Shown here: in pieces, positions 5,978 to 26,923 of the stretch
How positions within the stretch are numbered: position 1 is the stretch's first letter
Layout: each line of letters opens with the position of its first letter
Virus record (IMG/VR): IMGVR_UViG_3300042905_006745
Location: 1 to 47,156 of that record
Direction: 5' to 3' (one strand)
DNA from: a virus
Length of the DNA stretch: 47,156 nt
Made by a program: the position numbers and the translations under genes
Notes under the pieces: model-generated
Seen by the model: the letters and a program-made list of their open reading frames with translations, nothing else
What the model was told of the DNA's origin: nothing
Databases searched by the model: none

Positions 5978-6985
5978 ATGAATAACACAGTAGCAGCCAA
6001 GGTTCGCGTGGTCGTTGGCATGTCTGGCGGCGTTGACAGTTTTGCTGCGGCAAAGGCTCTGGTCGATGCGGGCTATGACGTTGTTGGTTTGACTATCAAG
6101 CTTCACCAATACGCCGATGACGATGCTGGTGGCTGTTGCACCTTCAATGACATTCGTGATGCCTCGCTGTGTTGTGAGCGTCTGGGAATCGAGCATCACG
6201 TTGTCCCGATGCTCAAGCCTTTCCGGGAGAATGTTGTCGATAAGTTCTTAGATGCAGAGAGGAATGGCGTGCACATCAACCCTTGTGTTGGTTGCAACTC
6301 TGATATCAAGTTCCCATTCTTCTATCAAGCTGCCATGGCTCTCAAGGCGGATTACATTGCCACTGGGCACTATGTTCAGAAGGTTGAACTTCCTGACGGT
6401 ACGGTGGCACCTGGGATTGGGTCAACAAAGGACCAGAGCTATTTTCTCTGGGATGTGAACAGGGATATCCTGAAGCGTACGTTGTTTCCACTTGGCGAGA
6501 TCTCAAGCAAGGATCAGACGCGTGAGATGGTGCAGGACGTCTTTGCGCGGGTTGCCAAGAAGAAGGACTCGACGGACCTTTGTTTCCTGAATGGCAAGTC
6601 TCGAAAGGAGTATCTGGCAGAGAATGGCGTGACGGCACTGCCAAGCATTGGCCAGAAGATCAATGGAAAGTATTATCTTGGAGTCGTTGGAAGTTTCGCC
6701 GCGAACTCCTCAGATCCCCAGCTATACTCGGACAAGATCTCCTGCAACAGTTTGAAGATCCATTGCACCACTGAGCTGTTTGATCGGCTCATGAACGATG
6801 GTGACCTGTACGTCGTGACTCGATCATCAAGCTCAACAAGGGACGACGTTGCACTCAAGGGCTATGACCGCTTGACAAACGACATGATCCTTGCTACACC
6901 TACTAAGCGCACTTCACCCGGTCAGGCAGCCGTGGTTTATAGCCGCAAGTATCGTGCAGTTGTGGCTGGCGGTTTGATCGTATAA
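5978..6985 (+). CDS. mnmA: tRNA-specific 2-thiouridylase MnmA
   Basis: MnmA makes 2-thiouridine at wobble position 34 of tRNAs for Lys, Glu and Gln, using ATP and a relayed persulfide. The PP-loop is SGGVDS (residues 16-21). The nucleophile Cys103 lies in NPCVGCN and the partner Cys202 in STDLCFL, matching the Cys102/Cys199 pair of the E. coli enzyme. KDQSYFL (151-157), ATGHY and the C-terminal SPGQAAVVY of the beta-barrel domain are all present. At 335 residues it is slightly short of bacterial enzymes but has all domains, so it should be active. It is bounded by a terminator and its own promoter upstream. Sulfur delivery must come from the host, since no relay genes are seen here. It may keep the phage's translation going or resist anticodon nucleases (inference). 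Confidence 0.92.
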   Translation: MNNTVAAKVRVVVGMSGGVDSFAAAKALVDAGYDVVGLTIKLHQYADDDAGGCCTFNDIRDASLCCERLGIEHHVVPMLKPFRENVVDKFLDAERNGVHINPCVGCNSDIKFPFFYQAAMALKADYIATGHYVQKVELPDGTVAPGIGSTKDQSYFLWDVNRDILKRTLFPLGEISSKDQTREMVQDVFARVAKKKDSTDLCFLNGKSRKEYLAENGVTALPSIGQKINGKYYLGVVGSFAANSSDPQLYSDKISCNSLKIHCTTELFDRLMNDGDLYVVTRSSSSTRDDVALKGYDRLTNDMILATPTKRTSPGQAAVVYSRKYRAVVAGGLIV

Positions 6986-7959: not shown

Positions 7960-8919
7960 ATGGCATCATCACCTCCTCCCACCGTGTTCAGCAATCTCCC
8001 AAGAGAATACTCAATACCACGCCTAGCTGAATTTGTGTGGGTCGAGGACTTCTTCGTCGAGGAAATACTTGGTGGAGCAGAGCTGACCTCTGATGCGATT
8101 ATACGGGGCCTTAACGCACCACAACGTATCAAGCATATTCATTCCCAGTCTCTGACAGAAACTCTGGTCAAGATCAACAAACACAAGACATGGATCTTTG
8201 GTAACCAGACGCAGGTACCTTTCCATATCCTGGATCTATTCCTGTCATTGGGTATCAGGTACTACTTCTTCGAGTACGACTACAAACCTTGTATCTATCG
8301 CTCGATCAAGAAACATGAGCTATCTTCTGGCAAGCCATGCGACTGTCACCTGAACAGTTATGGAATGTTTCAGGCGCAGTGGATGGCAGGCGCTCAGAAG
8401 ATCTTCTGGTGCTCAACAGGCCAGAAGAATCAGTTCTATAGAATCTACCCGGAGTTGTTGGAAGACAGAGATCCTAGCAGGGATGTGATCCAGTGGAGCA
8501 CCTTCTATCCGGAATCAATCTTGAAGATGAGAGAACTCAGAGAAGCACGTCAGAGAGGAGAGGTGGAAGTGCAGGACAGGTGGATTGTTCTAGATTCTGA
8601 TAGCTGGATCAAAGGGACAGAAGACTCGGTTAAGTTTTGCCGCGAAAACAACATGAACTTCCAGCTAGTGAAAGGTGTGAGCAATGACGAGTTCCTCAGA
8701 CTCCTCAACACCAGCAAAGGCATGGTTTTCAGACCTTTGGATATAGACGTTGGATCGAGGACAGCACAAGAATGTTTGCTTGTTGGCGCTGAACCTATCT
8801 TGAATAGCAACGTTTTGCCAGTCCATGAAGAGCTTTATCGCCGCGGAAACGTAGTAGAATTGGAACAATGGCACTTGGATGGCCCCGTAAGGTTCTGGAG
8901 AAGTGTTGAAGGCTACTAG
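7960..8919 (+). CDS. Glycosyltransferase-like protein (GT-B type)
   Basis: A 319-residue protein with the outline of a GT-B glycosyltransferase. The N-terminal half has VEDFFVEEILGGAELTSDAI, a gly-rich segment common near the start of GT4-type enzymes, and WIFGNQTQVP. A four-Cys-containing middle (PCDCH, FWCSTG) is unusual. The C-terminal half has the donor-side pattern FLRLLNTSKGMVFRPLDIDVGSRTAQECLLVGAEPI, where the Glu of AQECLL would hold the nucleotide sugar. It would move a sugar from a nucleotide donor to an unknown acceptor. It stands apart from the main cassette at 12231-18532, after two unknown genes, and converges with the reverse-strand metallopeptidase, overlapping it by four bases at the stops. 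Confidence 0.65.
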   Translation: MASSPPPTVFSNLPREYSIPRLAEFVWVEDFFVEEILGGAELTSDAIIRGLNAPQRIKHIHSQSLTETLVKINKHKTWIFGNQTQVPFHILDLFLSLGIRYYFFEYDYKPCIYRSIKKHELSSGKPCDCHLNSYGMFQAQWMAGAQKIFWCSTGQKNQFYRIYPELLEDRDPSRDVIQWSTFYPESILKMRELREARQRGEVEVQDRWIVLDSDSWIKGTEDSVKFCRENNMNFQLVKGVSNDEFLRLLNTSKGMVFRPLDIDVGSRTAQECLLVGAEPILNSNVLPVHEELYRRGNVVELEQWHLDGPVRFWRSVEGY

Positions 8920-9287
8920 GCTAGATCCGAGTAGATTTCTCTATGTTTCCTGCCATGGAAGCGCACAAGGCGGCCTGCCATGAGGTTAGCCATATCCTCA
9001 AATTCCTGCAATCCCTCATCATCTTCCGGAAACACAACCCCATCCTCCATCTGTTTGCAGTGAGTCAACTCATGCGCAAGCGTCCGACAGACATCGGCAA
9101 TAGCTCTGTTCTTTGCACAGACAAAGATCCGGTTGTTGGTTAGGTCATAGTATCCTGCCGTTGGTTGCGAGCTGAACGGTTCTGTGCTCAAGGTGACCTT
9201 TGCCGGGTTTCTTATTCCCAGTTCCTTGACACAATGCTGAGCGAACTCCGTCACAATTCGCACTATTTCCTTGTCGCTCAGGTCCAT
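8916..9287 (-). CDS. HExxH zinc metallopeptidase-like protein (SprT/IrrE-like)
   Basis: A 123-residue protein with the zinc-binding signature HELTH (His72, Glu73, His76) and a downstream acidic segment EFEDMAN (95-101), where Glu95 or Glu97 could be the third metal ligand. This is the minimal gluzincin core found in SprT-like and IrrE/ImmA-like proteins and in many small phage proteins. No membrane segment or export signal is seen, so action in the cytoplasm is likely. It might cleave a repressor or a DNA-bound protein, or be structural. It is one of only two reverse-strand genes; its stop overlaps the stop of the + strand gene at 8919 (CTAG). I see no clear promoter or Shine-Dalgarno. Confidence 0.75.
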   Translation of the reverse strand: MDLSDKEIVRIVTEFAQHCVKELGIRNPAKVTLSTEPFSSQPTAGYYDLTNNRIFVCAKNRAIADVCRTLAHELTHCKQMEDGVVFPEDDEGLQEFEDMANLMAGRLVRFHGRKHREIYSDLA

Positions 9288-9329: not shown

Positions 9330-9359
9330 TTGACATCTCATGCGAACACGTGCTTCAAT
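9330..9359 (+). promoter_or_regulatory. Early-type promoter for guaC
   Basis: TTGACA (9330-9335), 18-base spacer, TTCAAT (9354-9359). The predicted start is near 9366, just before ATG 9369. The -10 box is weak, so this is the poorest of the set after the one at 12195. Confidence 0.35.
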
Positions 9360-9368
9360 CAGGTCTAT

Positions 9369-10439
9369 ATGAACTCCGAACTGATGGACCGCTACTTCCC
9401 TAAACGAGTAAAATATCTTGACTATGCCAATGTTGCGATCATCCCGCAGCACTCCGACATAGCCACCCGCGCTGACGTGCGCACTGATGGGATGTTCATG
9501 AGAAATCAGGACGTCAACACCAAGTTAGAGTGGGATGTGCCAATCATCCCTGCGAACATGGATTCAATCGTCGGTATCGACCTTGTGAAGAACGTGATCA
9601 ATGCTGGGGGGATTGCATCGATGCATCGGTTCTCTACCCTAGAGCAGTTAGAAACCGACCTTGCAGCACTAGCACAGTCAAAGATCGGCCGCGACTCTTG
9701 GAAGCCGCGACTGTTTGGGTCGCTTGGTCTGCTCACAAAGGATATAGAGCAACGTCGTGCAGCACTGCTCTTTAGGCACGGGGTGCGCAACTTCATGATT
9801 GACATTGCACACGGCCATAGCAAAGACATGGTCAAATCGATTCAGTGGCTGCGTAAAACATTTGGCCAAAGAATCAATATTGGCGTTGGTAACGTCGGCA
9901 CCGCCCGGGCAGTTCAAGATTTGCACAGTGTTGGTGCAGATATCATCAAGGTTGGGATTGCTGGCGGGAAGGTGTGTCGGACAAGGAATGTGACTGGCGT
10001 GTACACTCCAATGTTCAGCACTGTCCTGGAGTGTGCCAACCTTGACTGTGTTCGGAATGGGGAGGTTCTTCTCATTGCTGATGGTGGTGTTCGCGAGTAT
10101 GGTGATGTTGCCAAAGCAATTGGTGCTGGGGCGCGTTTGGTCATGGCCGGATATCTCTTCGCTGGATGTACCGACGCAAACATGCCAACCATCTACCGAG
10201 GAATGGCTAGCAACGAGGTCGCCTACAGTGCCTATGAGCTTGGGTTGCGTGAGGATAAGCCAACTGCTGCCGCCGAGGGAGTACAGATCACCATTGCAGA
10301 GTCAAAGAAGAGTTCGGCGGACATAGTGACGGAGCTTGGTGCTGCTCTTCGCAGTGCATATTCTTATGTCGGCGCAAGAAACACCGCAGAGTTCCAAGAG
10401 TCTGTGCAGTTCGTCGAGATCGATCCAAGCCAGCGTTGA
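9369..10439 (+). CDS. guaC: GMP reductase (IMPDH/GMPR family)
   Basis: GMP reductase turns GMP into IMP with NADPH, feeding guanine back to the adenine side of purine pools. The 356-residue length matches GMPR (about 347) rather than IMP dehydrogenase, which normally carries CBS domains that are absent here. Catalytic Cys203 lies in AGGKVCRTR, followed by TGVYTPMFSTVLECA, closest to the GMPR pattern (TGVGYPQLSAV). IADGGVREYGDVAKAIGAGA is the phosphate-binding stretch. ATG 9369 is chosen over an upstream TTG (9330): it has AGG five bases upstream, and the TTG lies in the promoter's -35. A truncated IMP dehydrogenase is the alternative. Together with the nucleotide-sugar genes it may help shape nucleotide pools. 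Confidence 0.85.
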   Translation: MNSELMDRYFPKRVKYLDYANVAIIPQHSDIATRADVRTDGMFMRNQDVNTKLEWDVPIIPANMDSIVGIDLVKNVINAGGIASMHRFSTLEQLETDLAALAQSKIGRDSWKPRLFGSLGLLTKDIEQRRAALLFRHGVRNFMIDIAHGHSKDMVKSIQWLRKTFGQRINIGVGNVGTARAVQDLHSVGADIIKVGIAGGKVCRTRNVTGVYTPMFSTVLECANLDCVRNGEVLLIADGGVREYGDVAKAIGAGARLVMAGYLFAGCTDANMPTIYRGMASNEVAYSAYELGLREDKPTAAAEGVQITIAESKKSSADIVTELGAALRSAYSYVGARNTAEFQESVQFVEIDPSQR

Positions 10440-10973: not shown

Positions 10974-12002
10974 GTGAGTAAAAACAGCAACAAGTTGAGA
11001 TTGGCCGTTCTCAACAACATTGAGAAATATAAAGCCAACCTACTGACCCAGCAGGCAACCCCGCCACAAGAGCCCACACCACCTCAGTCGACCTTCATGG
11101 AAGATATGATGTTCCTTCTGAATCCAAAGAAGCAGAACATCATCAATGCATCCTTGAACGATGGCGACATTCTGAAGAAAGATCTGGATAAGGTCAGAGA
11201 GACAGTTTCATACACCGAGCTCTCCAACTGGGTCGAGTGTCAGTGGCGCCATAAGTTGAAGTATCTAGAGGGCATCGAGCTCGAAGAGGATGGCCCATCG
11301 ATCCATACTGAGTTTGGACAGATCGGCCACGACGCCCTGGAATATTACCTAAAAGAGCGGAAGTTCGAGTCATACGACAAGATCCGCGGCGATCTCAAGG
11401 AGGCCCTCGACGTCCTTTCTGAATCTGCCCTGAAGAACCAAGACAAGCAAAGCTTCATCGACTCGCTAGAGCCAGTCCTCCAGCAGATCCCAGATTTCAT
11501 GGACCAAGCCTTTGGCAAAGATTGGAAGTTCTACGCAGCAGAGCTCCCTCTCTTTGAAACCATCGAAGGGGAACCAGACAAGGTCTTCAAAGGATTTGTT
11601 GATGCAATGTTCACGGTTCCCAAACCGGAAGGGTCGACCACCATCAAGCGCAACCCCGAGACGCTCTGGATCGTTGACTGGAAATGGAGTGGTAGCTTCT
11701 GGAGCCCCATGAAGGTCAAGGACAAGCAGCTCCAGCTCGTTCTCTACAAGCACTATGTCTCGAAGAAGTTTGACATTGACCCAAGAGACATCCGGACCGG
11801 TTTCGTTGTCTTGAAGCGTGGAACAAAGCCGTCAAAGTCTGGGAACATCAGGCTTGAGGAAGTGAATATCACAGCAAAGACCACAGAGCTAGCTATCCAG
11901 CAGCTTTCCAGGTTTTTTGGTAGCGTCCGGAAAGGGTTCTTCACGAAGAACAGGGACAGTTGCAAATACTGTGTCTACAAAGGCACCAGACACTGCACAT
12001 GA
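10974..12002 (+). CDS. PD-(D/E)XK nuclease with probable Fe-S cluster (Cas4/RecB-like)
   Basis: A 342-residue exonuclease-type protein. YTELSNWVECQWRHKL opens the domain with Cys89; the metal site is Asp210 (GFVDAMF) with Asp235 and Lys237 in VDWKWS; QLQLVLYKHYV matches the QxxxY motif of RecB-family nucleases; the C-terminus has Cys330, Cys333 and Cys341 (CKYC, RHC). One upstream Cys plus a CxxC-x7-C cluster is the iron-staple arrangement of Cas4 and AddB, holding a 4Fe-4S cluster. It probably resects DNA ends for the phage RecA or degrades host DNA. No CRISPR genes are nearby, so Cas4 here means fold only. The start codon is GTG. The last four bases overlap the next gene. Confidence 0.85.
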   Translation: MSKNSNKLRLAVLNNIEKYKANLLTQQATPPQEPTPPQSTFMEDMMFLLNPKKQNIINASLNDGDILKKDLDKVRETVSYTELSNWVECQWRHKLKYLEGIELEEDGPSIHTEFGQIGHDALEYYLKERKFESYDKIRGDLKEALDVLSESALKNQDKQSFIDSLEPVLQQIPDFMDQAFGKDWKFYAAELPLFETIEGEPDKVFKGFVDAMFTVPKPEGSTTIKRNPETLWIVDWKWSGSFWSPMKVKDKQLQLVLYKHYVSKKFDIDPRDIRTGFVVLKRGTKPSKSGNIRLEEVNITAKTTELAIQQLSRFFGSVRKGFFTKNRDSCKYCVYKGTRHCT

Positions 12003-12230: not shown

Positions 12231-13199
12231 ATGACGACTGCACAAGAAGAGGCAACGGCAAACACTAAGAGGAAAAAGATTGTGGTAACTGGGGGTGCCG
12301 GTTTCATCGGGTCGCACCTTGTCGACAAACTTTGCATGAACACGGACAACGACGTCCATGTGATCGACAACTACTCATCCTATGACTACGCTACAGCAAA
12401 GGTTTACGAAAATCCTGCGGCAACATACCACCGCAAAGATATTGTTGTGTCTGAGCTGGGACAGGTCCTGTATGGAGCGAAGGTGATCTACCACCTCGCG
12501 GCCGAAGCCAGGATTCAGGCCAGTTTTGATCGGCCAGAATGCAGTCTCAATACCAACGTGATTGGCACCATGGCTCTGCTCACCCAAGCATATGCAGCCA
12601 ACAAAGACCGCTGCGAACTACCACGGATTGTTTTCACTTCGACCAGCTCTCTCCATGCAGACGGTGTGGCCGTGAAGAAGACGGCAAACATCTTGGACAA
12701 CGTGGCGCCAAAGACACCGTACTCGATTGGTAAACTAGCCGCCGAGAAGTTGATCGAACAATACTGGGGAGCTCAGTGTGGAGGCTCTTGGGTGATTGCT
12801 CGTCTTTTCAACGTATATGGACCACGTCAACCGATCACTGGGAAGTATGCAACCGTGGTTGGGTTGTTTGAGCAGCAGCTTCTGAACGAAAAGCACTGCA
12901 CCATCGTCGGCAACGGCAAACAAACACGTGATTTCACATATGTTTTCGACGTTGTTGACGTGTTGGCTCTGCTGCAAGATCCTAGATATAGCAACGTTCA
13001 CAACCTAGCGTCTGGGTCCTCGATCAACATGTTTGACCTAGTCAACCTCCTGGTTCAACATCACAAGCTCCAGACGTACGGGTTCACACACCTCCCAGCC
13101 CGCAAAGGGGAGTCTAAGTCTGTAGTTGCATCGTCAAGTTATTCTTCCGCGATTCGAACAATTCAATGGGTCTTGCGCCCCATTGAAAACAGCGAATAA
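12231..13199 (+). CDS. NAD-dependent sugar-nucleotide epimerase/dehydratase
   Basis: An extended short-chain dehydrogenase acting on nucleotide sugars. The NAD site is GGAGFIGS (residues 21-28); HLAAEA follows as expected; the catalytic pair is Tyr164 and Lys168 in YSIGK with a STSS stretch before it; ARLFNVYGPRQ and GNGKQTRDFTYVFDVVD are typical of UDP-glucose 4-epimerase-like enzymes. Length (322) is normal. It would make or convert the activated sugar used by the glycosyltransferases that follow at 13464-18532. The exact substrate (epimerase, dehydratase or decarboxylase) cannot be told. A 9-base hairpin lies in its last codons (13162-13187). Confidence 0.9.
   Translation: MTTAQEEATANTKRKKIVVTGGAGFIGSHLVDKLCMNTDNDVHVIDNYSSYDYATAKVYENPAATYHRKDIVVSELGQVLYGAKVIYHLAAEARIQASFDRPECSLNTNVIGTMALLTQAYAANKDRCELPRIVFTSTSSLHADGVAVKKTANILDNVAPKTPYSIGKLAAEKLIEQYWGAQCGGSWVIARLFNVYGPRQPITGKYATVVGLFEQQLLNEKHCTIVGNGKQTRDFTYVFDVVDVLALLQDPRYSNVHNLASGSSINMFDLVNLLVQHHKLQTYGFTHLPARKGESKSVVASSSYSSAIRTIQWVLRPIENSE
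13162..13187 (+). repeat. Inverted repeat at the epimerase 3' end
   Basis: TTCAATGGG (13162-13170) and CCCATTGAA (13179-13187) are perfect 9-base complements around the 8-base loop TCTTGCGC, inside the last codons of the epimerase. No T-run follows, so it is not a standard terminator. It may act as an RNA-stability or processing hairpin that separates epimerase and glycosyltransferase expression. Confidence 0.5.
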
Positions 13200-13225
13200 T
13201 AAAGGCGATTTGTGTTGCAAGAACA

Positions 13226-13450
13226 ATGAGAATAATCGTGTATTACACAAAGATAGAGGCCACTTTTGGCCCAAGTAATCCAATACCGGCCGGATTAGTT
13301 TATGCCATTGGTGACATGGTTGAAAACCGTCTATTTGGCCATGCGAAGCCTCATCCAGAATATGACGACAGACTCAGAGATATTCGTTGGTTGTTGGATT
13401 TGGCTGACATTGCCGGTCTTCTACAAACAGACGATGGTTCATCATCATGA
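13226..13450 (+). CDS. Unknown small protein, 74 aa
   Basis: Starts with a beta strand (MRIIVYYTKIEATF), then a helix-rich half ending RLFGHAKPHPEYDDRLRDIRW and LDLADIAGLLQTDDG. The pattern RLF-x-H, Tyr, Arg-Asp, Leu-Ala-Asp and Gln-Thr-acidic is also seen at the end of the 64-residue protein before the epimerase. It sits between the epimerase and the first glycosyltransferase. No signal peptide or known domain. Coding is supported by position and this likely paralogue. Confidence 0.6.
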   Translation: MRIIVYYTKIEATFGPSNPIPAGLVYAIGDMVENRLFGHAKPHPEYDDRLRDIRWLLDLADIAGLLQTDDGSSS

Positions 13451-13463
13451 TAGCTGACAAGCA

Positions 13464-14186
13464 ATGAACATCCTCATCAAGTTCCCAACTCGTGGCCGAC
13501 CAGAAAAGTTCTTTGATGTTCTGCACAGGTACATGGCTGGGATCAAGGTTCGAGACAAGGTTCAATTTCTCGTGACGATTGACAGCGACGATCAGAGCAT
13601 GAACAATTCCGCGGCGATCTCCAAGCTCAACTCATATTCGAACCTGTCCTATGGGTTTGGCATGTCAAGATCAAAGATTGATGCTTGTAACAGAGATCTC
13701 AACGACTACCTCAAGACAGCCACAGTCCAGCCAGACATCATCCTGCTAGCCTCTGATGACATGATTCCTCAAGAGCGTGGCTATGATGAGATCATCAGGT
13801 CTGACATGGCGAAGCATTTCCCAGACACCGATGGTTGCCTTTGGTATAGCGATGGTTACAGGAAAGACTTCTGCACCCTGAGCATCCTTGGCAGAAGGTA
13901 CTACGACCGGTTCAACTATCTCTATCACCCTTCCTACAAGTCATTCTACTGTGACAATGAGTTCACAGAGGTTGCACAGTCGGCAGGGAAGATCAGGTAC
14001 ATTGAGAAAGTGATCATCAAGCACCTCCACCCAGACTGGATTCAGACTGATCCAAACGCACAAAGGATGCAAGAGACTTTGTTTGGAGGAACACAGCTAC
14101 ATGACCAGACGTTCATGCGCAACTCCCCATACGTGCAGACAGACAAGATGAACTACGAGAAAAGAAAAGCCGCGGGGTTTCCATAG
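13464..14186 (+). CDS. Glycosyltransferase, GT-A/GT2-like
   Basis: A 240-residue GT-A-type protein. The start NILIKFPTRGRPEKF is the usual first strand and Arg-rich turn of this group; IDSDDQS (near residue 39) and LLASDDMIP (near 97) supply Asp pairs for the metal and nucleotide sugar; the C-terminal half has DGYRKDF and a His-Pro-Asp motif (HLHPDW), common in GT2 folds. No membrane segment, so it works in the cytoplasm, before assembly if it modifies virion proteins, or on DNA. It is followed two bases later by the next transferase. Donor and acceptor are unknown. Confidence 0.75.
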   Translation: MNILIKFPTRGRPEKFFDVLHRYMAGIKVRDKVQFLVTIDSDDQSMNNSAAISKLNSYSNLSYGFGMSRSKIDACNRDLNDYLKTATVQPDIILLASDDMIPQERGYDEIIRSDMAKHFPDTDGCLWYSDGYRKDFCTLSILGRRYYDRFNYLYHPSYKSFYCDNEFTEVAQSAGKIRYIEKVIIKHLHPDWIQTDPNAQRMQETLFGGTQLHDQTFMRNSPYVQTDKMNYEKRKAAGFP

Positions 14187-14188
14187 CC

Positions 14189-14956
14189 ATGAAGATGCCA
14201 TCATTCCTTAAGCCATCAGAAGACAACAAGAAACACCCTCGCAGAGTCATCTCATATTCGCTCTGGGGCAACAATCCGAAATACGTGATCGGAGCCATTG
14301 AGAATGCCAAACAGGCCCCAGAATATTATCCTGGATGGGATACGAGGTTCTATATCGGAAAGAACACGGACTCATCAATTGTAAATCATCTGTCGCGGGT
14401 GGGGTCGCACGTTGATATACGCATGATGCCAGATGACGAGCCGAGCTGGTCAGGAACGTTCTGGCGATTCTATCCCATAGACGAACCAGACACTGTCTTT
14501 ATATCGCGAGATTGTGACTCAAGGCTTTCTGAACGTGAATCACTGGCCGTACATCAATGGCTGGAGACTGACAAGACATATCACATCATGCGCGATCATC
14601 CGGCGCACGACATTGAGATCCTTGCTGGGATGTGGGGAGCAAAGCCAAAGGAAGGCCGCAAGCCTGTGAAAGACCTGATCGATCTATGGTTGCAAACCAA
14701 GGCAAAGAAGGACTACTGGCAGGTTGATCAGGATTTTCTCAAGGATGTTTTCTGGCGCAGGTACAACGTTGCCAACGATTCAGTGGCCCATGACGAGTTC
14801 TTCACTAAGTTCACTCATTCCATCACCCTTCCATTCCCTTCGCAGAGGGTCGACTATGAGTTTGTTGGTGATGTGTTTGATGCAGCAAACAGGCGTCATC
14901 CGGAATATTGGAAGAAGGTTGCTGAAGTGATCTTGCAAGGAGGGAAGGTTAGATAG
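14189..14956 (+). CDS. Glycosyltransferase-like protein with a DxD motif
   Basis: A 255-residue protein with the classic metal site RDCDSRLSERE (107-117), where DCD is the DxD motif, and IEILAGMWGAK, a segment usual in Och1-like and related GT-A enzymes near the acceptor site. The N-terminus SYSLWGNNPKYVIGA also fits this group. Start ATG 14189 comes two bases after the previous stop. The gene ends directly against the next ATG, so the set is tightly linked. The alternative is a catalytically different sugar-binding relative, but the intact DxD argues for activity. Confidence 0.75.
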   Translation: MKMPSFLKPSEDNKKHPRRVISYSLWGNNPKYVIGAIENAKQAPEYYPGWDTRFYIGKNTDSSIVNHLSRVGSHVDIRMMPDDEPSWSGTFWRFYPIDEPDTVFISRDCDSRLSERESLAVHQWLETDKTYHIMRDHPAHDIEILAGMWGAKPKEGRKPVKDLIDLWLQTKAKKDYWQVDQDFLKDVFWRRYNVANDSVAHDEFFTKFTHSITLPFPSQRVDYEFVGDVFDAANRRHPEYWKKVAEVILQGGKVR

Positions 14957-15880
14957 ATGGCATACAAGGTACTGATCGTCCAAGAGCACGGGCGCCACAA
15001 AGAGAATGAGGAGTTCAGAGAGAGTGAGTGTCTCAAGCGTGCATTCAAACGAATTGAAGGTGTTGACTCTGAGATCTGGGGATTGAACTACCCGAACTTC
15101 GACGCAGGCAACCCAGAGCAATCTTACAACAAAGCCATAGAGTCCTCAGATGTTGCCTTGGTCCTTGAGAACTACGATCAGCAAGGATGGCTGCCAGACT
15201 TCTCTAAGACAAAGAAGCCAAAGGCTTTCTGGAGCATCGACTCGCACTGTGCACTGGGCAAACATGTCTGGTTTGCCAAGCAGTCCAAGTTTGACATTCA
15301 CTTCAACAGCACACCTGAGTATCTGAAACAGTTTGCAGCACATTCCCAGAAGACTCTCTGGCTTCCTAACGCATTTCCAGCAGATCTGTTCGCGGCAGAC
15401 TGTGTTCAGGACTTTGGCCAACAGAAACATCAGGTTGGATTCTGTGGAAGCATGATCGCAGACAGGGCACAGTGGCTAGATTCAGTCGACAAGTTGATCG
15501 TGCACACACCAAACCTCACAGGAAGAGTGCGCCGCGACATTTTTGTTCTCGGCCAGAACATGATCAACGCCCTGAGTTCCTATCAGATCAGCTTGAACAA
15601 GTCCATCGCCACTGATATCAACTACCGGGTCTTCGAGTCCATGGCGACAGGAGCGCTCCTTCTTACCAACTCAGACCCACCAGCCTTGAAAGAACTGTTC
15701 ACCGACGGCAAACACCTCCTGACCTACACTTCAACCCAGGATTTGGCCGACAAGATCAGATGGGCTTTCGGAAACCAAGAACAGGCCAAGTTCATTGCTG
15801 CAACTGGCTGCTTGGAGACAAGGTTCAAGCATTCATACGACAACAGAGCTAGAACAATTCTAGACGCATTCCGCTCCTAA
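14957..15880 (+). CDS. Glycosyltransferase, GT-B type (CgeB-like)
   Basis: A 307-residue protein. Its C-terminal half holds VFESMATGALLLTNSDPPALKELFTDGKHLL, the donor-binding region of GT4/CgeB-like enzymes with Glu in FESMA. The N-terminal half has KAFWSIDSH and FNSTPEYLKQF, also typical of CgeB-like proteins. One of the best ribosome sites in the window, AAGGAGGG, lies about 12 bases before the start, which abuts the previous stop. A 64-base gap with a hairpin follows before the next transferase. Confidence 0.78.
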   Translation: MAYKVLIVQEHGRHKENEEFRESECLKRAFKRIEGVDSEIWGLNYPNFDAGNPEQSYNKAIESSDVALVLENYDQQGWLPDFSKTKKPKAFWSIDSHCALGKHVWFAKQSKFDIHFNSTPEYLKQFAAHSQKTLWLPNAFPADLFAADCVQDFGQQKHQVGFCGSMIADRAQWLDSVDKLIVHTPNLTGRVRRDIFVLGQNMINALSSYQISLNKSIATDINYRVFESMATGALLLTNSDPPALKELFTDGKHLLTYTSTQDLADKIRWAFGNQEQAKFIAATGCLETRFKHSYDNRARTILDAFRS

Positions 15881-15902
15881 CGCAACCAGCGTATACAACA
15901 AA

Positions 15903-15942
15903 TTACTGCGGTCTGTAATATCTTTTACTACAGAAGCAGTAA
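15903..15942 (+). promoter_or_regulatory. Hairpin and -10-like box directly before a glycosyltransferase start
   Basis: TTACTGC (15903-15909) pairs with GCAGTAA (15936-15942), and TCTGTA (15912-15917) with TACAGA (15929-15934), giving a 7+6 base-pair stem with a small internal bulge and an 11-base A/T-rich loop. The ATG is at 15945. The box TAATATC (15916-15922), a possible late -10, overlaps it. The structure may control translation or be an operator. Confidence 0.5.
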
Positions 15943-15944
15943 GT

Positions 15945-17225
15945 ATGTCCTCCACCCCAAACATCACCCAAAAAAAGCAAAAGATTCTCTTCATTTCGGA
16001 TCACCAACTCTCTACCTCGGGTGTAGGAACTCAGAGTCGGTTTCTTATCCAAGGTCTTTTGCAGACTGGTCGATACACTTTTAGGTGTTTTGGCGGCGCG
16101 GTGAAGCATCCTGACTATCGCACGATCATGGTCAACGAGGATTTCATCATCAAGCCTGTGGATGGGTTTGGGAACAGGGAAGTTCTGCGTGCAACTTTGA
16201 TCAACGAGCAACCTGATGCTGTGATCATCTTCACGGATCCACGCCAGTTCATGTGGCTCTGGGAGATGGAGGATGAGATTCGTCAGTTCTGTCCAATTCT
16301 TTACTGGCACGTCTGGGACAATGATCCATATCCTACCTTCAATGATGTCTGGTATCGTTCCACTGACACGATCAACTGTCTTTCCTGGAAGACGTATGAG
16401 CTTTTGAAGCCAAACCATCCAGAGAAAGTTGCGTATATCCCTCATGCATTTCCAAAGGAGGTCATGCATCCACTCCCAGCCGAACAGGTGAAGGCCATCA
16501 GGGCTCAGAACTTCGGTGCAAGGGCTGACTGGCTCATGGGCCTTTGGGTCAACAGGAATGCAACCAGGAAGATGCCAAATGATGTGCTCAACGCATGGAA
16601 GGAATTCCTCGACAACCTGGAAGTCAAGGAAGGTCACCGCAAAGCTCTGATGGTCATGCACACAGACCCGGTTGATCCAGAAGGGCCAAACCTTTACGCA
16701 GTGGTAGATCAGTTGGGGATTCGTGACAACGTTGTGTTCTCGACCAACAAGCTTGAGTTCCAGGACATGAACGGCCTCTACAATTGCGCAGATTTTGTCG
16801 TCAACATTTCGAAGGCAGAGGGTTTTGGGCTTTCTCTACTCTCAGCGCTCATGATTGGTAAGCCAATTGTTGGACTTAAGACTGGCGGGATGACAAGGCA
16901 ACTCGTCAACCACGAGACAGGCTTTGTGCACGGTGTTGCGATTGAACCCGCGGCTAGGACTATGGTTGGATCGCAGGTTGTTCCATTCATTTATGATGAC
17001 CATGCGAACTATCACGACGTTTCGAAAGCTTACATGGATATCTATGAGTTGGTCAAACGCAACCCTGCAAAGCTCAAGGAGCTTTCTGAGAATGCGATGG
17101 CATATGCGGCCAAGGAGTTCAACTACGAAACTGTTCTGCAAGCATGGGATGAGTCGATCATGCAGAGCATCAAGACGTTCAGCGAAACAAAAGGTAGTGG
17201 CAGGTTCACAGTAGAGACTGTTTGA
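15945..17225 (+). CDS. Glycosyltransferase family 4-like protein
   Basis: A 426-residue GT-B enzyme. KILFISDHQLSTSGVGTQSRFL is the N-terminal Gly-rich acceptor-domain start; KAEGFGLSLLSALMIGKPIVG (291-311) is the C-terminal donor site, with the first Glu of the usual E-x7-E pair kept and the second replaced by Ser. NRNATRKMPNDVLNAW and DHANY are also present. Whether the missing Glu lowers activity cannot be judged by eye. It is preceded by a hairpin and -10-like box, so it may begin its own late unit, with the following transferase as partner. Confidence 0.85.
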   Translation: MSSTPNITQKKQKILFISDHQLSTSGVGTQSRFLIQGLLQTGRYTFRCFGGAVKHPDYRTIMVNEDFIIKPVDGFGNREVLRATLINEQPDAVIIFTDPRQFMWLWEMEDEIRQFCPILYWHVWDNDPYPTFNDVWYRSTDTINCLSWKTYELLKPNHPEKVAYIPHAFPKEVMHPLPAEQVKAIRAQNFGARADWLMGLWVNRNATRKMPNDVLNAWKEFLDNLEVKEGHRKALMVMHTDPVDPEGPNLYAVVDQLGIRDNVVFSTNKLEFQDMNGLYNCADFVVNISKAEGFGLSLLSALMIGKPIVGLKTGGMTRQLVNHETGFVHGVAIEPAARTMVGSQVVPFIYDDHANYHDVSKAYMDIYELVKRNPAKLKELSENAMAYAAKEFNYETVLQAWDESIMQSIKTFSETKGSGRFTVETV

Positions 17226-17263
17226 GATAAGTGAATCTGAGAGAGAAAGAAAGACACAAACAC

Positions 17264-18532
17264 ATGACAACGCAACTGCAAACACCAACTTCAATCCTTC
17301 TCCGCGGACCTCTGCTCTCGATCAGCGGGTACGGTACGCATGCCAGACAGTTTGCAAGATTCCTGCAAATCCTCGAAGAAACCTCAACCCCAGGTTCTCT
17401 GAAAATTGTCTTTGAGATCCTGCCTTGGGGAATGACGCACTTCATGCTCGATCCCACCCTGGAGGACGGGCTGATTGGATATATTCTAGACAAGGCAGCG
17501 AAGACCAAAGTAGGCACTGGAGAGCATCAGTTCTTTGACTATACACTTCAGGTACAACTCCCAGACGAATGGAGCGTCTTTCTTGGGAACTATAACATTG
17601 GCATCACTGCTGGGGTTGAGACGACGAAATGCAATCCGGCATGGGTTGAATGTATCAACAGAATGGATCTGGTGATTGTTCCGTCGGAGTTCACCAAGAC
17701 CTGTTTTACCAACACTGGAACTGTAACCACAAAGGTCGAGGTTGTTCCGGAGCATTACCCGGACTCTTTCTGGTATCCTGCAAACACCCCAGCGAGAGGC
17801 CGATTTGACAAGCAACTGGCTGACACGCACACGAACTTCCTGTTCGTTGGTCAGTTCACTGGAAACAATGTAGATAATGACCGCAAGAACATCCCATTCA
17901 TGATCAAGTGGTTGAGCGAGTGTCTGGCCGATAAAGAAGGAGTTGGCGTAGTGTTGAAGCTCAACTCTGGTGCTGCGACTGAGCTCGACAAGCAACAGGT
18001 CAAGAGGATCGTTGGTGACATTCTTCGGGAGGTCAGACCAGCGGGCCAAGTTTGGCCAAAGTTCACCCTGGTTCACGGCCACCTAAATGATCAGGAGATG
18101 ATTGAGCTCTATACTCACGAGAAGATCAAGGCCATGGTCAGTCTGACTCACGGTGAGGGCTATGGTTTGCCACTGCTTGAACAGGCAGTTTGCGCAAAAC
18201 CAATCATTGCCACGAACTGGTCCGGACATACTGAGTTTCTAGGCAAAGGAAAGTGGCTGCCAGTAGAGCACCGGCTTGGAACGATCCACCAGACACGCGT
18301 GGACAACAAGATCTTCATGCCAGATGCACAGTGGGCTTTCCCACTTGAGCAGGCGTTCAAGAAACGTGTTCTTAAGTTCTTGGAATCACCAGAGCTGCCC
18401 ACTCAGTGGGCCTCCGATCTGGCCAAGAAACTGATTGAAGAATACTCGTCTGAGTCATGCTTCGCAAAACTGTCGGCTGTGTTGCCAGAGCAGCTTAAAC
18501 TGTCGATCAAGTCACATAAGTATTCTCCATGA
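17264..18532 (+). CDS. Glycosyltransferase family 4 protein
   Basis: A 422-residue GT-B enzyme with SISGYGTHARQF near the N-terminus and the full E-x7-E donor site HGEGYGLPLLEQ (296-307), followed by AKPIIATNWSGHTEFL. Start ATG 17264 is preferred over GTG 17231, as the 39 bases before it form a purine-rich leader (GAGAGAAAGAAAGA). Its stop overlaps the next start (ATGA, 18529-18532). The similar fold and adjacent position suggest it descends with the 426-residue gene from a duplication and may act on the same glycan. Confidence 0.85.
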   Translation: MTTQLQTPTSILLRGPLLSISGYGTHARQFARFLQILEETSTPGSLKIVFEILPWGMTHFMLDPTLEDGLIGYILDKAAKTKVGTGEHQFFDYTLQVQLPDEWSVFLGNYNIGITAGVETTKCNPAWVECINRMDLVIVPSEFTKTCFTNTGTVTTKVEVVPEHYPDSFWYPANTPARGRFDKQLADTHTNFLFVGQFTGNNVDNDRKNIPFMIKWLSECLADKEGVGVVLKLNSGAATELDKQQVKRIVGDILREVRPAGQVWPKFTLVHGHLNDQEMIELYTHEKIKAMVSLTHGEGYGLPLLEQAVCAKPIIATNWSGHTEFLGKGKWLPVEHRLGTIHQTRVDNKIFMPDAQWAFPLEQAFKKRVLKFLESPELPTQWASDLAKKLIEEYSSESCFAKLSAVLPEQLKLSIKSHKYSP

Positions 18533-18882
18533 TTATTGCCGTCTTGTCGACCTTGTGCATACTCTTGATCATTGGTCTTTATTTCAGTCTCAAATATATG
18601 CTGAAGTTTGCCAGGATCATCATGATGCTGGAGGATGACCTGTCGGACGCATCAGAAACGCACAAGCAGGCATCGGAAGTGATGAATCGATTCAGTGAGT
18701 TACAGGTTTACACTGACAGCCCTGAGATCGCGCGAAAACTTCAGCAGTGCAGGGAAGAGTTGCAGCTAAGCGCGATGGCCATAGAGAAGTTGGCCAATAC
18801 ATTGACGGCACGTAGCAAACAGAAATATATTCGTTTCGAAGAGGAAGAACGTACGCCGGTTCTCCCAGCAGACACTGACTGA
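18529..18882 (+). CDS. N-terminally membrane-anchored coiled-coil protein, 117 aa
   Basis: Residues 2-24 are a hydrophobic segment (IIAVLSTLCILLIIGLYFSL) at the very N-terminus, followed by a Lys-containing start of the cytoplasmic part and about 75 residues with heptad-like helices (RIIMMLEDDLSDA, MNRFSELQVYTDSPEIARKLQQCREELQL). The end is acidic. It is coupled by ATGA to the transferase upstream and precedes the sigma gene. A small scaffold at the inner membrane is a reasonable guess; no function can be named. Confidence 0.7.
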   Translation: MIIAVLSTLCILLIIGLYFSLKYMLKFARIIMMLEDDLSDASETHKQASEVMNRFSELQVYTDSPEIARKLQQCREELQLSAMAIEKLANTLTARSKQKYIRFEEEERTPVLPADTD

Positions 18883-18914: not shown

Positions 18915-19709
18915 ATGACAACTACAACAATCGCACTAGAGACACCGGCAACAAAGCCAGCAAAACCCGCAAAGCTTAAGAAGAAGACCATCAAACGCAA
19001 GCTGGTTGGTGGTGCAACACCTGAGCAGTTCTATTTCAACGCAGGGACTCAGGATGCCATCATGGAGTTCAAGGCCGAGACTGACAAGCTTAAGCGCGAC
19101 AAGATCTATGTGCAACGCATCCTCCCAGCATTTGAGAAGTTGGCCGAGAACCTGATCAACGTGTATCGGTTCCAGGTCGCATATTCAACCAAGGGAGAGT
19201 TGCAGTCAGCATGTGTGAATTTTCTCTATGACACCATTCCGAAGTTTGATGCTGCTAGAGGTTCAAGAGCTTTTGGATATTTCAACGTGATTGCCAAACA
19301 CTGGCTGATCGTTGAGTGCAAGAAATCGGCCAAGCAACAGCGTGTCTTGTGTTATATTGACGATCATGATGGCCTCTCAACCTCCGAGAGTGACCAGATC
19401 GAGAACTATAAATCAGTTCTGTCGCCAGAAGATCAATGTATCAACCATGAGTCCAAGCTCAAGGCTGGAATGATCATGACAGAGCTGGGTGGTAGTTTGC
19501 AAACAGAGGACGAGCGCAAATTCTTCGAGCACATCAAGAGCATTCTTGCTTCTGCCGAGGATCTAGATTTTCATAACAAACGTGCCGTGATGGCTTATCT
19601 GCGCGAGATGACGCATGCCCAGCCAAAGAAGCTCTCGACCATGTTGTCAAACATGAAACGTTACTACAAAGTTGCCAAGAAGAACGTCGAGGTTCAGCTC
19701 TATGAGTGA
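18915..19709 (+). CDS. 55: gp55-like late sigma factor
   Basis: T4 gp55 is a small sigma-70 relative that, with a sliding clamp and gp33, directs RNA polymerase to late promoters that lack a -35. This 264-residue protein has a Lys/Pro-rich N-terminal tail (about 40 residues) and then EQFYFNAGTQDAIMEF and RAFGYFNVIAKHWLI (about 118-132), the sigma region-2 helix that melts the -10 region and is well kept in T4-like gp55. The C-terminal half is helical and basic. It is longer than T4 gp55 (185) because of the tail and an extended C-terminus. It lies directly before the baseplate block, and the late-type -10 boxes found from 15.9 kb onward agree with it. A bacterial-type sigma is the less likely alternative. 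Confidence 0.75.
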   Translation: MTTTTIALETPATKPAKPAKLKKKTIKRKLVGGATPEQFYFNAGTQDAIMEFKAETDKLKRDKIYVQRILPAFEKLAENLINVYRFQVAYSTKGELQSACVNFLYDTIPKFDAARGSRAFGYFNVIAKHWLIVECKKSAKQQRVLCYIDDHDGLSTSESDQIENYKSVLSPEDQCINHESKLKAGMIMTELGGSLQTEDERKFFEHIKSILASAEDLDFHNKRAVMAYLREMTHAQPKKLSTMLSNMKRYYKVAKKNVEVQLYE

Positions 19710-25324: not shown

Positions 25325-26923
25325 TATCGAATCCTACGACCAACAGCCGACAGCTATATCACCAACAAGCTAATTCTCGGCTCTAGACCTGGAACAACGA
25401 GCTCAACTGATGCGAACGTTGGAATGGCTGGGACCATCGATCTGTTCAAGCTCTACAACGAAACAACGTTGCCATCAGGCTCTTCGGGCGTCGAGCTTTC
25501 CAGAGGCTTGGTCAAGTTTGATCTGAGCGAAGCCAGTTTCGTCACAGGATCAACGAATTTCAAAGCCTATTTCAAGATGAGCTCGGTATATGGCGGCCAG
25601 ACAACCCCATCGAACTTCAGCCTCGCAGTCTCTCCATTGGCCAAAGACTTTTCTGAAGGTGTTGGCTTTGATGTCGTCGCTTATCGCGACCTTGACGCGG
25701 TGAACTGGGTGACAGCGAGTATCAATGGTTCGACCATCACCGCGTGGACATCTGGCGGCTGTGGCTATGGTGGCGATGCGACCTCGTCGAGCCTGGACTA
25801 TATCACCTCGCTCGGCTCTGGGTCTGTTAACATGACATTCTCTCAGAGCTTTGCCACTGGGAGAGAAGATATGTTCCTCGATGTCACCCCGTATGTTTCG
25901 GCGGCAATTCACAACCAGTTAACTGATCGCGGCCTTCGTATCAGCTTCAGTGGTTCGCAAGAGACAGACACCGTCACCAGATTTGTTAAAAGGTTCAGCT
26001 CAAGACAAGCAAAGGATGCATCGAAACACCCAGCGTTGATCATTCAGTGCGAGGATTCATTCATCGACAACCAAGCGGATGCCTACCTTGACTATCCAAA
26101 CACAATAGGCGCCTACAACAACCCATTTAGCAATGCCAGGAACTTCGTTTCCGGTTCAGTTGCTGCAATTGGATCAGGCTCGGTGATCTTGGATCTGGTA
26201 GCTAGCAAGAGCGTGTACGTAACGGCGACAACCTACAGCATTTCGCACAGCGCTTCAATAACCTACTATTCATCTTCGTGGACTTACTTCTCCCAGTCTT
26301 TCACTGGCTCACAGATCACCTTTGACAATGGCAGTAGCTATCAGACTGGTTCTTACTTTGCTGATGTTTATGTGAACTCTAGAACCACTGGGCTGTCTGG
26401 CATTGCAAATGATGATGGCAGCGTGACGTTCATTCCTAAGTGGCGTCATCCATTGACGGCCTCATTTGTTTATGCAACTGGCAGTGCCATAACGATGAGG
26501 CCAGCCAACTTGGCCTTGCCTGCCTTTGGATCGACCTCCAGGAATGTTGTGGTAAACATCACGAACCTGAAGCCTGCTTACCAGCCTACTGACGTCGCCA
26601 GGATGCGTGTCTTCTTCTACGACTACGACTCGGAGCTCAGCGCGCAATACGTCAAAACTCCTCCAAAACCTAGGATATTTCCGAGCGTTGCCTGGAGTGT
26701 TATCGATTCCAACTCACAAACCACCATCATACCATTTGATGCAACATACACAAAGCTGTCATCGGACGGGGCTGGGATGTATTTCGATCTCTACATGAAA
26801 GATCTGCCGAAAAATACACCACTGGCCATCAAACTACAGGTCAGCGAAAACGTTACCGGTGGAGTCTGGTATGCGCCACAGCCACACTTTGTGCAGTTCA
26901 TCTTCAAGGTGACAGACAGATGA
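25322..26923 (+). CDS. Baseplate/tail protein with DNRLRE domain
   Basis: A 533-residue protein. Residues about 1-75 show the DNRLRE pattern: ADSYI near the start, an NVG turn (DANVGMAG), and RGLVKFDLSEA. DNRLRE domains are beta-rich modules in bacterial surface and phage structural proteins, often associated with carbohydrate contacts. The rest is beta-rich and Ser/Thr-rich. It overlaps the next gene by four bases (ATGA at 26920). The start codon lies in the hairpin at 25296-25324. A role in the baseplate or in tail fibre attachment is likely; no T4 counterpart was recognised. Confidence 0.75.
   Translation: MYRILRPTADSYITNKLILGSRPGTTSSTDANVGMAGTIDLFKLYNETTLPSGSSGVELSRGLVKFDLSEASFVTGSTNFKAYFKMSSVYGGQTTPSNFSLAVSPLAKDFSEGVGFDVVAYRDLDAVNWVTASINGSTITAWTSGGCGYGGDATSSSLDYITSLGSGSVNMTFSQSFATGREDMFLDVTPYVSAAIHNQLTDRGLRISFSGSQETDTVTRFVKRFSSRQAKDASKHPALIIQCEDSFIDNQADAYLDYPNTIGAYNNPFSNARNFVSGSVAAIGSGSVILDLVASKSVYVTATTYSISHSASITYYSSSWTYFSQSFTGSQITFDNGSSYQTGSYFADVYVNSRTTGLSGIANDDGSVTFIPKWRHPLTASFVYATGSAITMRPANLALPAFGSTSRNVVVNITNLKPAYQPTDVARMRVFFYDYDSELSAQYVKTPPKPRIFPSVAWSVIDSNSQTTIIPFDATYTKLSSDGAGMYFDLYMKDLPKNTPLAIKLQVSENVTGGVWYAPQPHFVQFIFKVTDR

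What the first reader, a model, noticed from the sequence alone, without database searches (positions are those of the whole stretch)
12231..18532. Phage-encoded glycan cassette: epimerase plus five glycosyltransferases, with a sixth apart
Seen: an epimerase (12231) and five transferase-like genes (13464, 14189, 14957, 15945, 17264) with at least three fold types (GT-A with DxD, CgeB-like GT-B, two GT4-like), packed with 0-64-base gaps apart from one small unknown ORF; a sixth transferase lies at 7960. Known: such enzymes build linear or branched sugars on DNA, proteins or surface glycans. Inference: the phage builds a multi-sugar glycan. Location directly before the late sigma factor and the baseplate block suggests either virion-protein glycosylation or modification of its DNA. 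Five different transferases for one product would be unusually many.
Basis: partly seen in the sequence, partly recalled or inferred. Interest (0 to 1): 0.72.

Follow-up and report, generated by a model that had tools for sequence, protein, structure and literature searches.

The report
Phage sugar-transferase pair with swappable cassette
An aquatic T4-like phage carries a very strongly conserved pair of sugar-transferase genes plus a swappable set of extra sugar enzymes, probably to coat its own particles with glycans, as algal giant viruses do; neither the glycan nor its target has been seen.

Summary
The epimerase and five glycosyltransferases are real; 14189, which has no Pfam match, is a confident GT-A model, and the sixth, 7960, a GT-B. 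But they are not one unit. The two GT4 genes (GT1, 15945-17225; GT2, 17264-18532) are a core pair of a large T4-like phage lineage: 48 of 49 loci collected by the late sigma factor alone carry both just upstream of it, and GT1 is the best conserved of seven genes compared in that block (60% mean identity; sigma 46%, baseplate wedge 46%). The epimerase and genes 13464/14189/14957 fill a slot between an exonuclease and GT1 that is usually empty, and that in near relatives also holds deoxy- and amino-sugar genes. No Wzx-type flippase, initiating sugar-phosphate transferase or O-acetylase was found in 26-27 related records, which argues against serotype-conversion-style host-surface modification. 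No base-hydroxymethylation or deazaguanine genes were found in the two nearest relatives (incomplete or of unknown completeness); the neighbouring 'QueC' is really MnmA-like. More distant relatives do carry dCMP-hydroxymethylase-like genes, so a DNA target stays possible. Best reading: a conserved core glycan with variable decoration on virion protein (0.5). The acceptor is untested.

The parts
15945..17225 (+). GT1, core GT4-type GT-B glycosyltransferase
   Evidence: PF00534 4e-10; best PDB match chlorovirus NY-2A B736L 3.1e-16; K209 and E292 identical in all 181 relatives, R204 in 179; second Glu of EX7E is Ser300 here, Glu in 168 of 181; highest mean identity of seven block genes
17264..18532 (+). 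GT2, core GT4-type glycosyltransferase (an alternative GTG start at 17231 is less likely)
   Evidence: PF00534 1.4e-8; directly 3' of GT1 within 300 bases, same strand, in 143 of 153 loci that carry both; median 4-base overlap
12231..13199 (+). NAD-dependent nucleotide-sugar epimerase (extended SDR); GxxGxxG and YxxxK present, no DE dehydratase motif, so probably a C4 epimerase
   Evidence: PF16363 1.6e-42; PDB epimerases from 3.3e-33; residues read from sequence
13226..13450 (+). small ORF of unknown function inside the insert
   Evidence: no family match
13464..14186 (+). GT-A-type glycosyltransferase
   Evidence: phrog_14945 5.4e-19; 55-56% identical genes in the same slot of L012 and G048
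14189..14956 (+). GT-A glycosyltransferase of a family shared with giant viruses
   Evidence: AF2 pLDDT 92.3; PDB fold hits GT8-like 2.6e-7; BFVD giant-virus hits TM up to 0.75; only meaningful PDB sequence hit PBCV-1 A064R domain 1, E=0.002
14957..15880 (+). CgeB-like GT-B glycosyltransferase
   Evidence: PF13524 6.4e-22
7960..8919 (+). sixth transferase, GT-B; relatives are mostly about 640 aa with a C-terminal GT2-like domain
   Evidence: AF2 pLDDT 92.4; Foldseek WaaG 1.5e-6; C-terminal extension read from the alignment; lengths and island neighbours
10974..12002 (+). PD-(D/E)XK/RecB-like exonuclease, conserved left border of the slot
   Evidence: phrog_69 1e-14; gap to GT1 median 55 bp, 300 bp or more in 8 of 55
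18529..18882 (+). small protein with an N-terminal hydrophobic helix between GT2 and sigma
   Evidence: hydropathy 2.71 over 19 residues; recognised in a minority of relatives
18915..19709 (+). T4 gp55-like late sigma factor, right neighbour of the pair
   Evidence: phrog_234 2.8e-5; 17-member alignment

Best explanation
GT1 and GT2 make the invariant inner part of a glycan, and the enzymes in the slot (epimerase, 13464, 14189, 14957) together with 7960 add strain-specific outer sugars. The glycan is made in the cytoplasm by soluble enzymes and is most probably attached to a virion protein during the late phase, giving a decorated particle with a conserved core and a variable surface, as in chlorovirus capsid glycans. 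Shown: the enzymes, the conserved pair, the variable slot, and no detected export, priming or O-acetylation machinery. Inferred: that GT1/GT2 act first, the virion acceptor, and late timing.
For: GT1-GT2 adjacency in 143/153 loci and presence in 48/49 sigma-anchored loci. Tight co-directional block nuclease-GT1-GT2-sigma-baseplate with median gaps of 55, -3, 293 and 8 bases. Pairwise distances of GT1/GT2 track gp6 and sigma (r 0.69-0.75). Slot content varies: empty in most, sugar-nucleotide and decorating genes in near relatives. No PF01943, PF02397, PF00953 or PF01757 match in 26-27 related records while bacterial controls rang. GT1's best solved relative is a chlorovirus GT, and 14189's family has its best fold matches in giant viruses. 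GT1 seen almost only on viral or virus-like contigs.
Against: No acceptor or glycan is observed. GT families do not reveal acceptors, and B736L's own acceptor is unresolved (PMC9614988). The A064R sequence match is weak (0.002). No T4-type late promoter excess was found, so late expression is unsupported. Some large relatives encode dCMP-hydroxymethylase-like enzymes. GT1 is so conserved that a conserved acceptor, including DNA, is not excluded. Several of the records searched are incomplete or of unknown completeness.
Confidence: 0.5

Rival explanations
1. DNA glycosylation: GT1 and GT2 put sugars on modified bases of phage DNA to block restriction, and the cassette extends them.
For: The pair usually sits beside a DNA exonuclease (nuclease found in 110 loci, GT1 in 137). 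In T4 the alpha-glucosyltransferase gene lies between genes 47 and 55. Eight large relatives carry thymidylate-synthase paralogues with Asn changed to Asp, as in T4 gp42, some beside a sugar epimerase. immuto has a full deazaguanine set.
Against: The two nearest relatives (G047 137 kb, G048 241 kb) have an ordinary ThyA with Asn and no hit to immuto Que/Dpd or T4 glucosyltransferases, although their completeness is not established. No PF00303 match in 15 contigs of the sigma-anchored clade. The window's QueC-like gene is MnmA-like. No sequence link of GT1/GT2 to T4 AGT or BGT. The T4 gene order is reversed. Amino- and deoxy-sugar genes are unusual for DNA (general knowledge).
Confidence: 0.22
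2. Host-surface modification: the enzymes alter LPS or capsule during infection and exclude competing phages, as proposed for pelagimyophages (PMC7029224).
For: Slot genes resemble O-antigen genes. GT8-like transferases are common in marine T4-like phages (PMC7029224).
Against: No Wzx flippase, WecA or WbaP initiators, or Oac-type acyltransferase in 26-27 records, no membrane segment in any transferase, and no GT1 homologue found on a contig that looks chromosomal. Transferases acting on host-made precursors at the inner membrane face would not need those genes, so this remains possible.
Confidence: 0.2
3. Another acceptor, such as tRNA, a small molecule or a host protein, with GT1/GT2 serving host takeover and the cassette being unrelated cargo.
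For: GT1's wider family includes enzymes acting on small molecules (BshA, TreT).
Against: The pair repeatedly keeps company with sugar-nucleotide genes.
Confidence: 0.08

Closest known systems
Autonomous capsid glycosylation of chloroviruses (PBCV-1/NY-2A: A064R, A111/114R, A075L; B736L/A546L)
   Same: Virus-encoded, mostly soluble cytosolic transferases; conserved core glycan with virus-specific outer sugars (PMC9614988); GT1's best PDB match is B736L (3.1e-16) and 14189's only meaningful one A064R domain 1 (0.002)
   Different: Tailed phage, not an algal giant virus; no capsid glycan observed; B736L's acceptor is itself unknown
Core glycosyltransferases of the moraphages (PMC12619734)
   Same: Large aquatic T4-related phages; four putative transferase orthogroups reported in the core genome
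   Different: Orthogroups not tested here against GT1/GT2; the text read gives no gene pair, order or slot
Virion glycosylation of mycobacteriophages (Freeman et al. 2023, cited in PMC12619734)
   Same: Phage-encoded transferases modifying capsid and tail proteins
   Different: Homology not tested here; the paper itself was not held and not read
T4 DNA glucosylation (AGT, BGT, gp42)
   Same: GT-B enzymes; alpha-gt lies between genes 47 and 55 in T4
   Different: No sequence link; no hydroxymethylase found in the nearest relatives
O-antigen-type glycosyltransferase islands of pelagimyophages (PMC7029224)
   Same: Variable transferase and deoxysugar genes in marine T4-like phages
   Different: There many lie in the host-recognition region with tail fibres; here a fixed pair with a slot beside it

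Membership tests
GT4 (retaining GT-B) for GT1 and GT2 | Glycos_transf_1 domain above curated cut-off | tested here: met
   39.9 and 34.9 bits against 26.4
GT4 (retaining GT-B) for GT1 and GT2 | R-x4-K and the first Glu of EX7E conserved | tested here: met
   GT1: K209 and E292 in 181/181, R204 in 179/181
GT4 (retaining GT-B) for GT1 and GT2 | Second Glu of EX7E | tested here: inconclusive
   GT1 of the window has Ser300, 168/181 relatives Glu; GT2 has Glu by sequence
Chlorovirus-type capsid glycosylation | Homologous transferases | tested here: inconclusive
   GT1-B736L 3.1e-16, but B736L's acceptor is unknown; 14189-A064R 0.002
Chlorovirus-type capsid glycosylation | Glycan on the capsid protein | not testable with these tools
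   needs virions
T4-type DNA glucosylation | Homology to AGT or BGT | tested here: not met
   hmmsearch of T4 AGT/BGT with GT1, GT2, 7960 and 14189 profiles: no score above 0.2 bits
T4-type DNA glucosylation | Pyrimidine hydroxymethylase in the genome | tested here: inconclusive
   nearest relatives: only ThyA with Asn in contigs of unproven completeness; Asp variants in eight distant ones; own genome incomplete
7-deazaguanine DNA modification | QueC and partners | tested here: not met
   5978-6985 is MnmA-like; no Que/Dpd hit in G047 or G048
Serotype-converting surface modification (Gtr/Oac/Wzx type) | Flippase, initiating transferase or membrane acyltransferase | tested here: not met
   0 of 26-27 records for four families, bacterial controls positive
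Mycobacteriophage-type virion glycosylation | Homologous transferases acting on capsid or tail tube | not tested
   no query run

The most novel reading that the evidence does not exclude
A whole, common lineage of aquatic T4-like phages depends on a virus-specific two-enzyme glycan core that is part of its late/baseplate gene block and is conserved more strongly than its late sigma factor, with decoration changed by gene swapping in one slot: a bacteriophage counterpart of the chlorovirus capsid-glycan system.
Probability: 0.38. Interest if true: 0.75.

Novelty: new variant of a known kind. Interest (0 to 1): 0.52.

Why it matters
Phage transferases are usually treated as accessory cargo. A pair found in 48 of 49 independently collected loci, with GT1 more conserved than the late sigma factor and a baseplate protein beside it, points to a basic function in a common aquatic phage lineage. 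Cultured phages with the pair exist (Flavobacterium phage immuto, Microcystis phage Mel-JY01, Rhodothermus phage RM378), so mass spectrometry of virions and DNA could settle the acceptor directly.

Tried and rejected
Deazaguanine link through 'QueC' at 5978: rejected, the protein is MnmA-like. T4 late promoter TATAAATA: no excess in the window (8 found, 7.8 expected) or upstream of orthologous genes. T4 synteny (alpha-gt near gene 55): real but reversed and without homology, kept only as a lead. Single-sequence scans of IMG/VR found nothing because the patterns were too strict; profile scans worked. Tet/JBP search: 0 of 37, but no control rang, so it proves nothing. 13226 as an epimerase remnant: weak match only, and the epimerase is full length; not pursued. 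Structure prediction of GT1/GT2 was not done: the two jobs went to the unclassified proteins. The conserved-pair claim was checked against ascertainment by a scan that used sigma only; the sigma profile itself was built from loci first found through GT1. The one sigma-anchored exception, L185, was not followed up. Whether accessory transferases occur in bacterial chromosomes was not scanned.
Full report
What is there. The window is an IMG/VR record of 47,156 bases from a T4-like myovirus, with a UvsX-like recombinase, late sigma factor, gp25- and gp6-like baseplate genes. No DNA-level relative was found in the phage collection. The epimerase and five transferases of the finding are present at the stated places. 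Two proteins had no family match: 14189 models as a GT-A (pLDDT 92; GT8/glycogenin-like matches, 2.6e-7) and 7960 as a GT-B (pLDDT 92; WaaG 1.5e-6). TM-scores to solved structures are moderate (about 0.35-0.55), so these assign the fold, not the activity.

Two parts with different histories. Blast and profile searches against related loci show that 15945 (GT1) and 17264 (GT2) are one unit: next to each other within 300 bases, in this order and on the same strand, in 143 of 153 loci that carry both, typically overlapping by four bases. They occur in Flavobacterium phage immuto, Microcystis phage Mel-JY01 (GT1 split in two frames) and, more distantly, Rhodothermus phage RM378; GT1 alone was recognised in huge phage LR756508. 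Because those loci were found through the transferases, I repeated the search with the late sigma factor alone: of 49 loci with at least 3.6 kb upstream, 48 carry GT1 and GT2 within 5.5 kb. Across 47 loci GT1 has the highest mean pairwise identity of seven block genes (0.60; sigma 0.46, gp6 0.46, GT2 0.45, nuclease 0.48), and GT1 and GT2 distances track those of gp6 and sigma (r 0.69-0.75). This fits vertical inheritance with the baseplate block rather than mobile cargo. Identity is a proxy; no selection test was run.

The slot. Between the PD-(D/E)XK exonuclease and GT1 the gap is a median 55 bases; it is 300 or more in 8 of 55 loci. In the window it is 3.9 kb and holds the epimerase, 13226, 13464, 14189 and 14957. 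In G048 (241 kb), which is syntenic with nearly the whole window from 8.9 kb on, the same enzymes are followed by further genes: a GT47-like protein, two DegT aminotransferases, a DXD transferase, a methyltransferase and a UDP-glucose/GDP-mannose dehydrogenase. In L012 the slot also holds WbqC, a methyltransferase, an epimerase and GDP-mannose 4,6-dehydratase; upstream of GT1 in L015 are a GT10 fucosyltransferase, a DegT aminotransferase and a nucleotidyltransferase. The lone transferase 7960 belongs to the same system: relatives sit directly 3' of GT2 (L040, L041, L048, L049, L382) or with 13464, 14189 and 14957 in islands (L329, L389, L399), mostly as proteins of about 640 residues with a GT2-like C-terminal extension that the window copy lacks.

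What the product may be attached to. Host surface: no Wzx flippase, WbaP- or WecA-type initiator, or membrane O-acyltransferase was detected in 26-27 related records, while bacterial controls rang, and the window transferases have no membrane segments. This argues against autonomous serotype conversion but not against action on host-made precursors. DNA: the two nearest relatives have an ordinary thymidylate synthase with the substrate-binding Asn, and no hit to deazaguanine genes or T4 glucosyltransferases; G047 is a fragment and the completeness of G048 was not established, so absence there is not proof. The window's 'QueC' is MnmA-like. However, eight larger relatives with GT1 encode Asp-type paralogues resembling dCMP hydroxymethylase, some beside an epimerase. 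GT1 occurs with and without them, so hydroxymethylcytosine is not its constant partner, but DNA remains a rival. Virion protein: favoured by elimination, by linkage to sigma and baseplate genes, and by resemblance to giant-virus enzymes: GT1 to chlorovirus B736L (3.1e-16 over most of its length) and 14189 to giant-virus proteins by fold and weakly to A064R domain 1 (0.002), a rhamnosyltransferase of the PBCV-1 capsid glycan (PMC9614988). The caveat is that B736L's acceptor is unresolved (PMC9614988), and homologous transferases often differ in acceptor.

Virus-specific family. In one genome for each of 84,980 species only 18 contigs encode a GT1 relative, all from metagenome-assembled genomes of mixed taxonomy. 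Most carry GT2 together with the nuclease or the phage sigma/baseplate block, a few carry GT2 only, and one (L437) shows GT1 alone. GT1 is therefore essentially a viral family, although the pattern scan is not exhaustive.

Prior knowledge. A 2015 study of uncultivated Far-T4 phages (neighbours of RM378) does not mention glycosyl genes (PMC4360716). The moraphage study reports four putative transferase orthogroups in the core genome without testing function (PMC12619734); whether two of them are GT1/GT2 was not tested. Pelagimyophage authors favour O-chain modification (PMC7029224). The new points here are the fixed pair, its conservation relative to sigma and baseplate genes, the slot, and the lack of detected export genes. 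Whether the window phage belongs to Far-T4 or moraphages was not tested by phylogeny.

Verdict. Confidence in a virion-protein target is 0.5; DNA 0.22; host surface 0.2; other 0.08.

Noticed in passing
window 5978-6985: Labelled QueC-like by PHROGs but matches tRNA 2-thiouridylase MnmA (NCBIfam 1.6e-66 over the N-terminal 206 positions, below that model's cut-off; PDB 8e-48), so a phage-encoded MnmA-like protein, possibly without the C-terminal part.
   Followed up: partly
L406-L413 (relatives G062, G056, G065, G054, G053, G059, G057, G050): Divergent thymidylate-synthase paralogues with Asn changed to Asp at the dUMP-binding site, as in T4 dCMP hydroxymethylase; next to a nucleotide-sugar epimerase, dCMP deaminase and thymidine kinase in L408. 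Candidates for hydroxymethylcytosine DNA.
   Followed up: partly
window 26920-30504: 1194-residue protein in the baseplate block with a concanavalin A-like lectin domain (PF13385 1.6e-12), possibly a sugar-binding tail protein.
   Followed up: no
window 8916-9287 (- strand): Small HExxH metalloprotease-like gene on the opposite strand between 7960 and the GMP reductase/IMP dehydrogenase-like gene; the same neighbour of that gene in G047 and G048.
   Followed up: no
window 9330-10439: GMP reductase/IMP dehydrogenase-like gene, also next to the nuclease in Mel-JY01 and several IMG/VR relatives.
   Followed up: no
L003 13489-14980 (Mel-JY01): The GT1 homologue is split into two adjacent frames, either a sequencing frameshift or real inactivation.
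   Followed up: no
L039 12319-15483, L042 12275-15463: GT2 homologues of more than 1050 residues, that is GT2 fused to further domains.
   Followed up: no
L185: The one sigma-anchored locus without the pair upstream; its other window homologues lie on the opposite strand.
   Followed up: no
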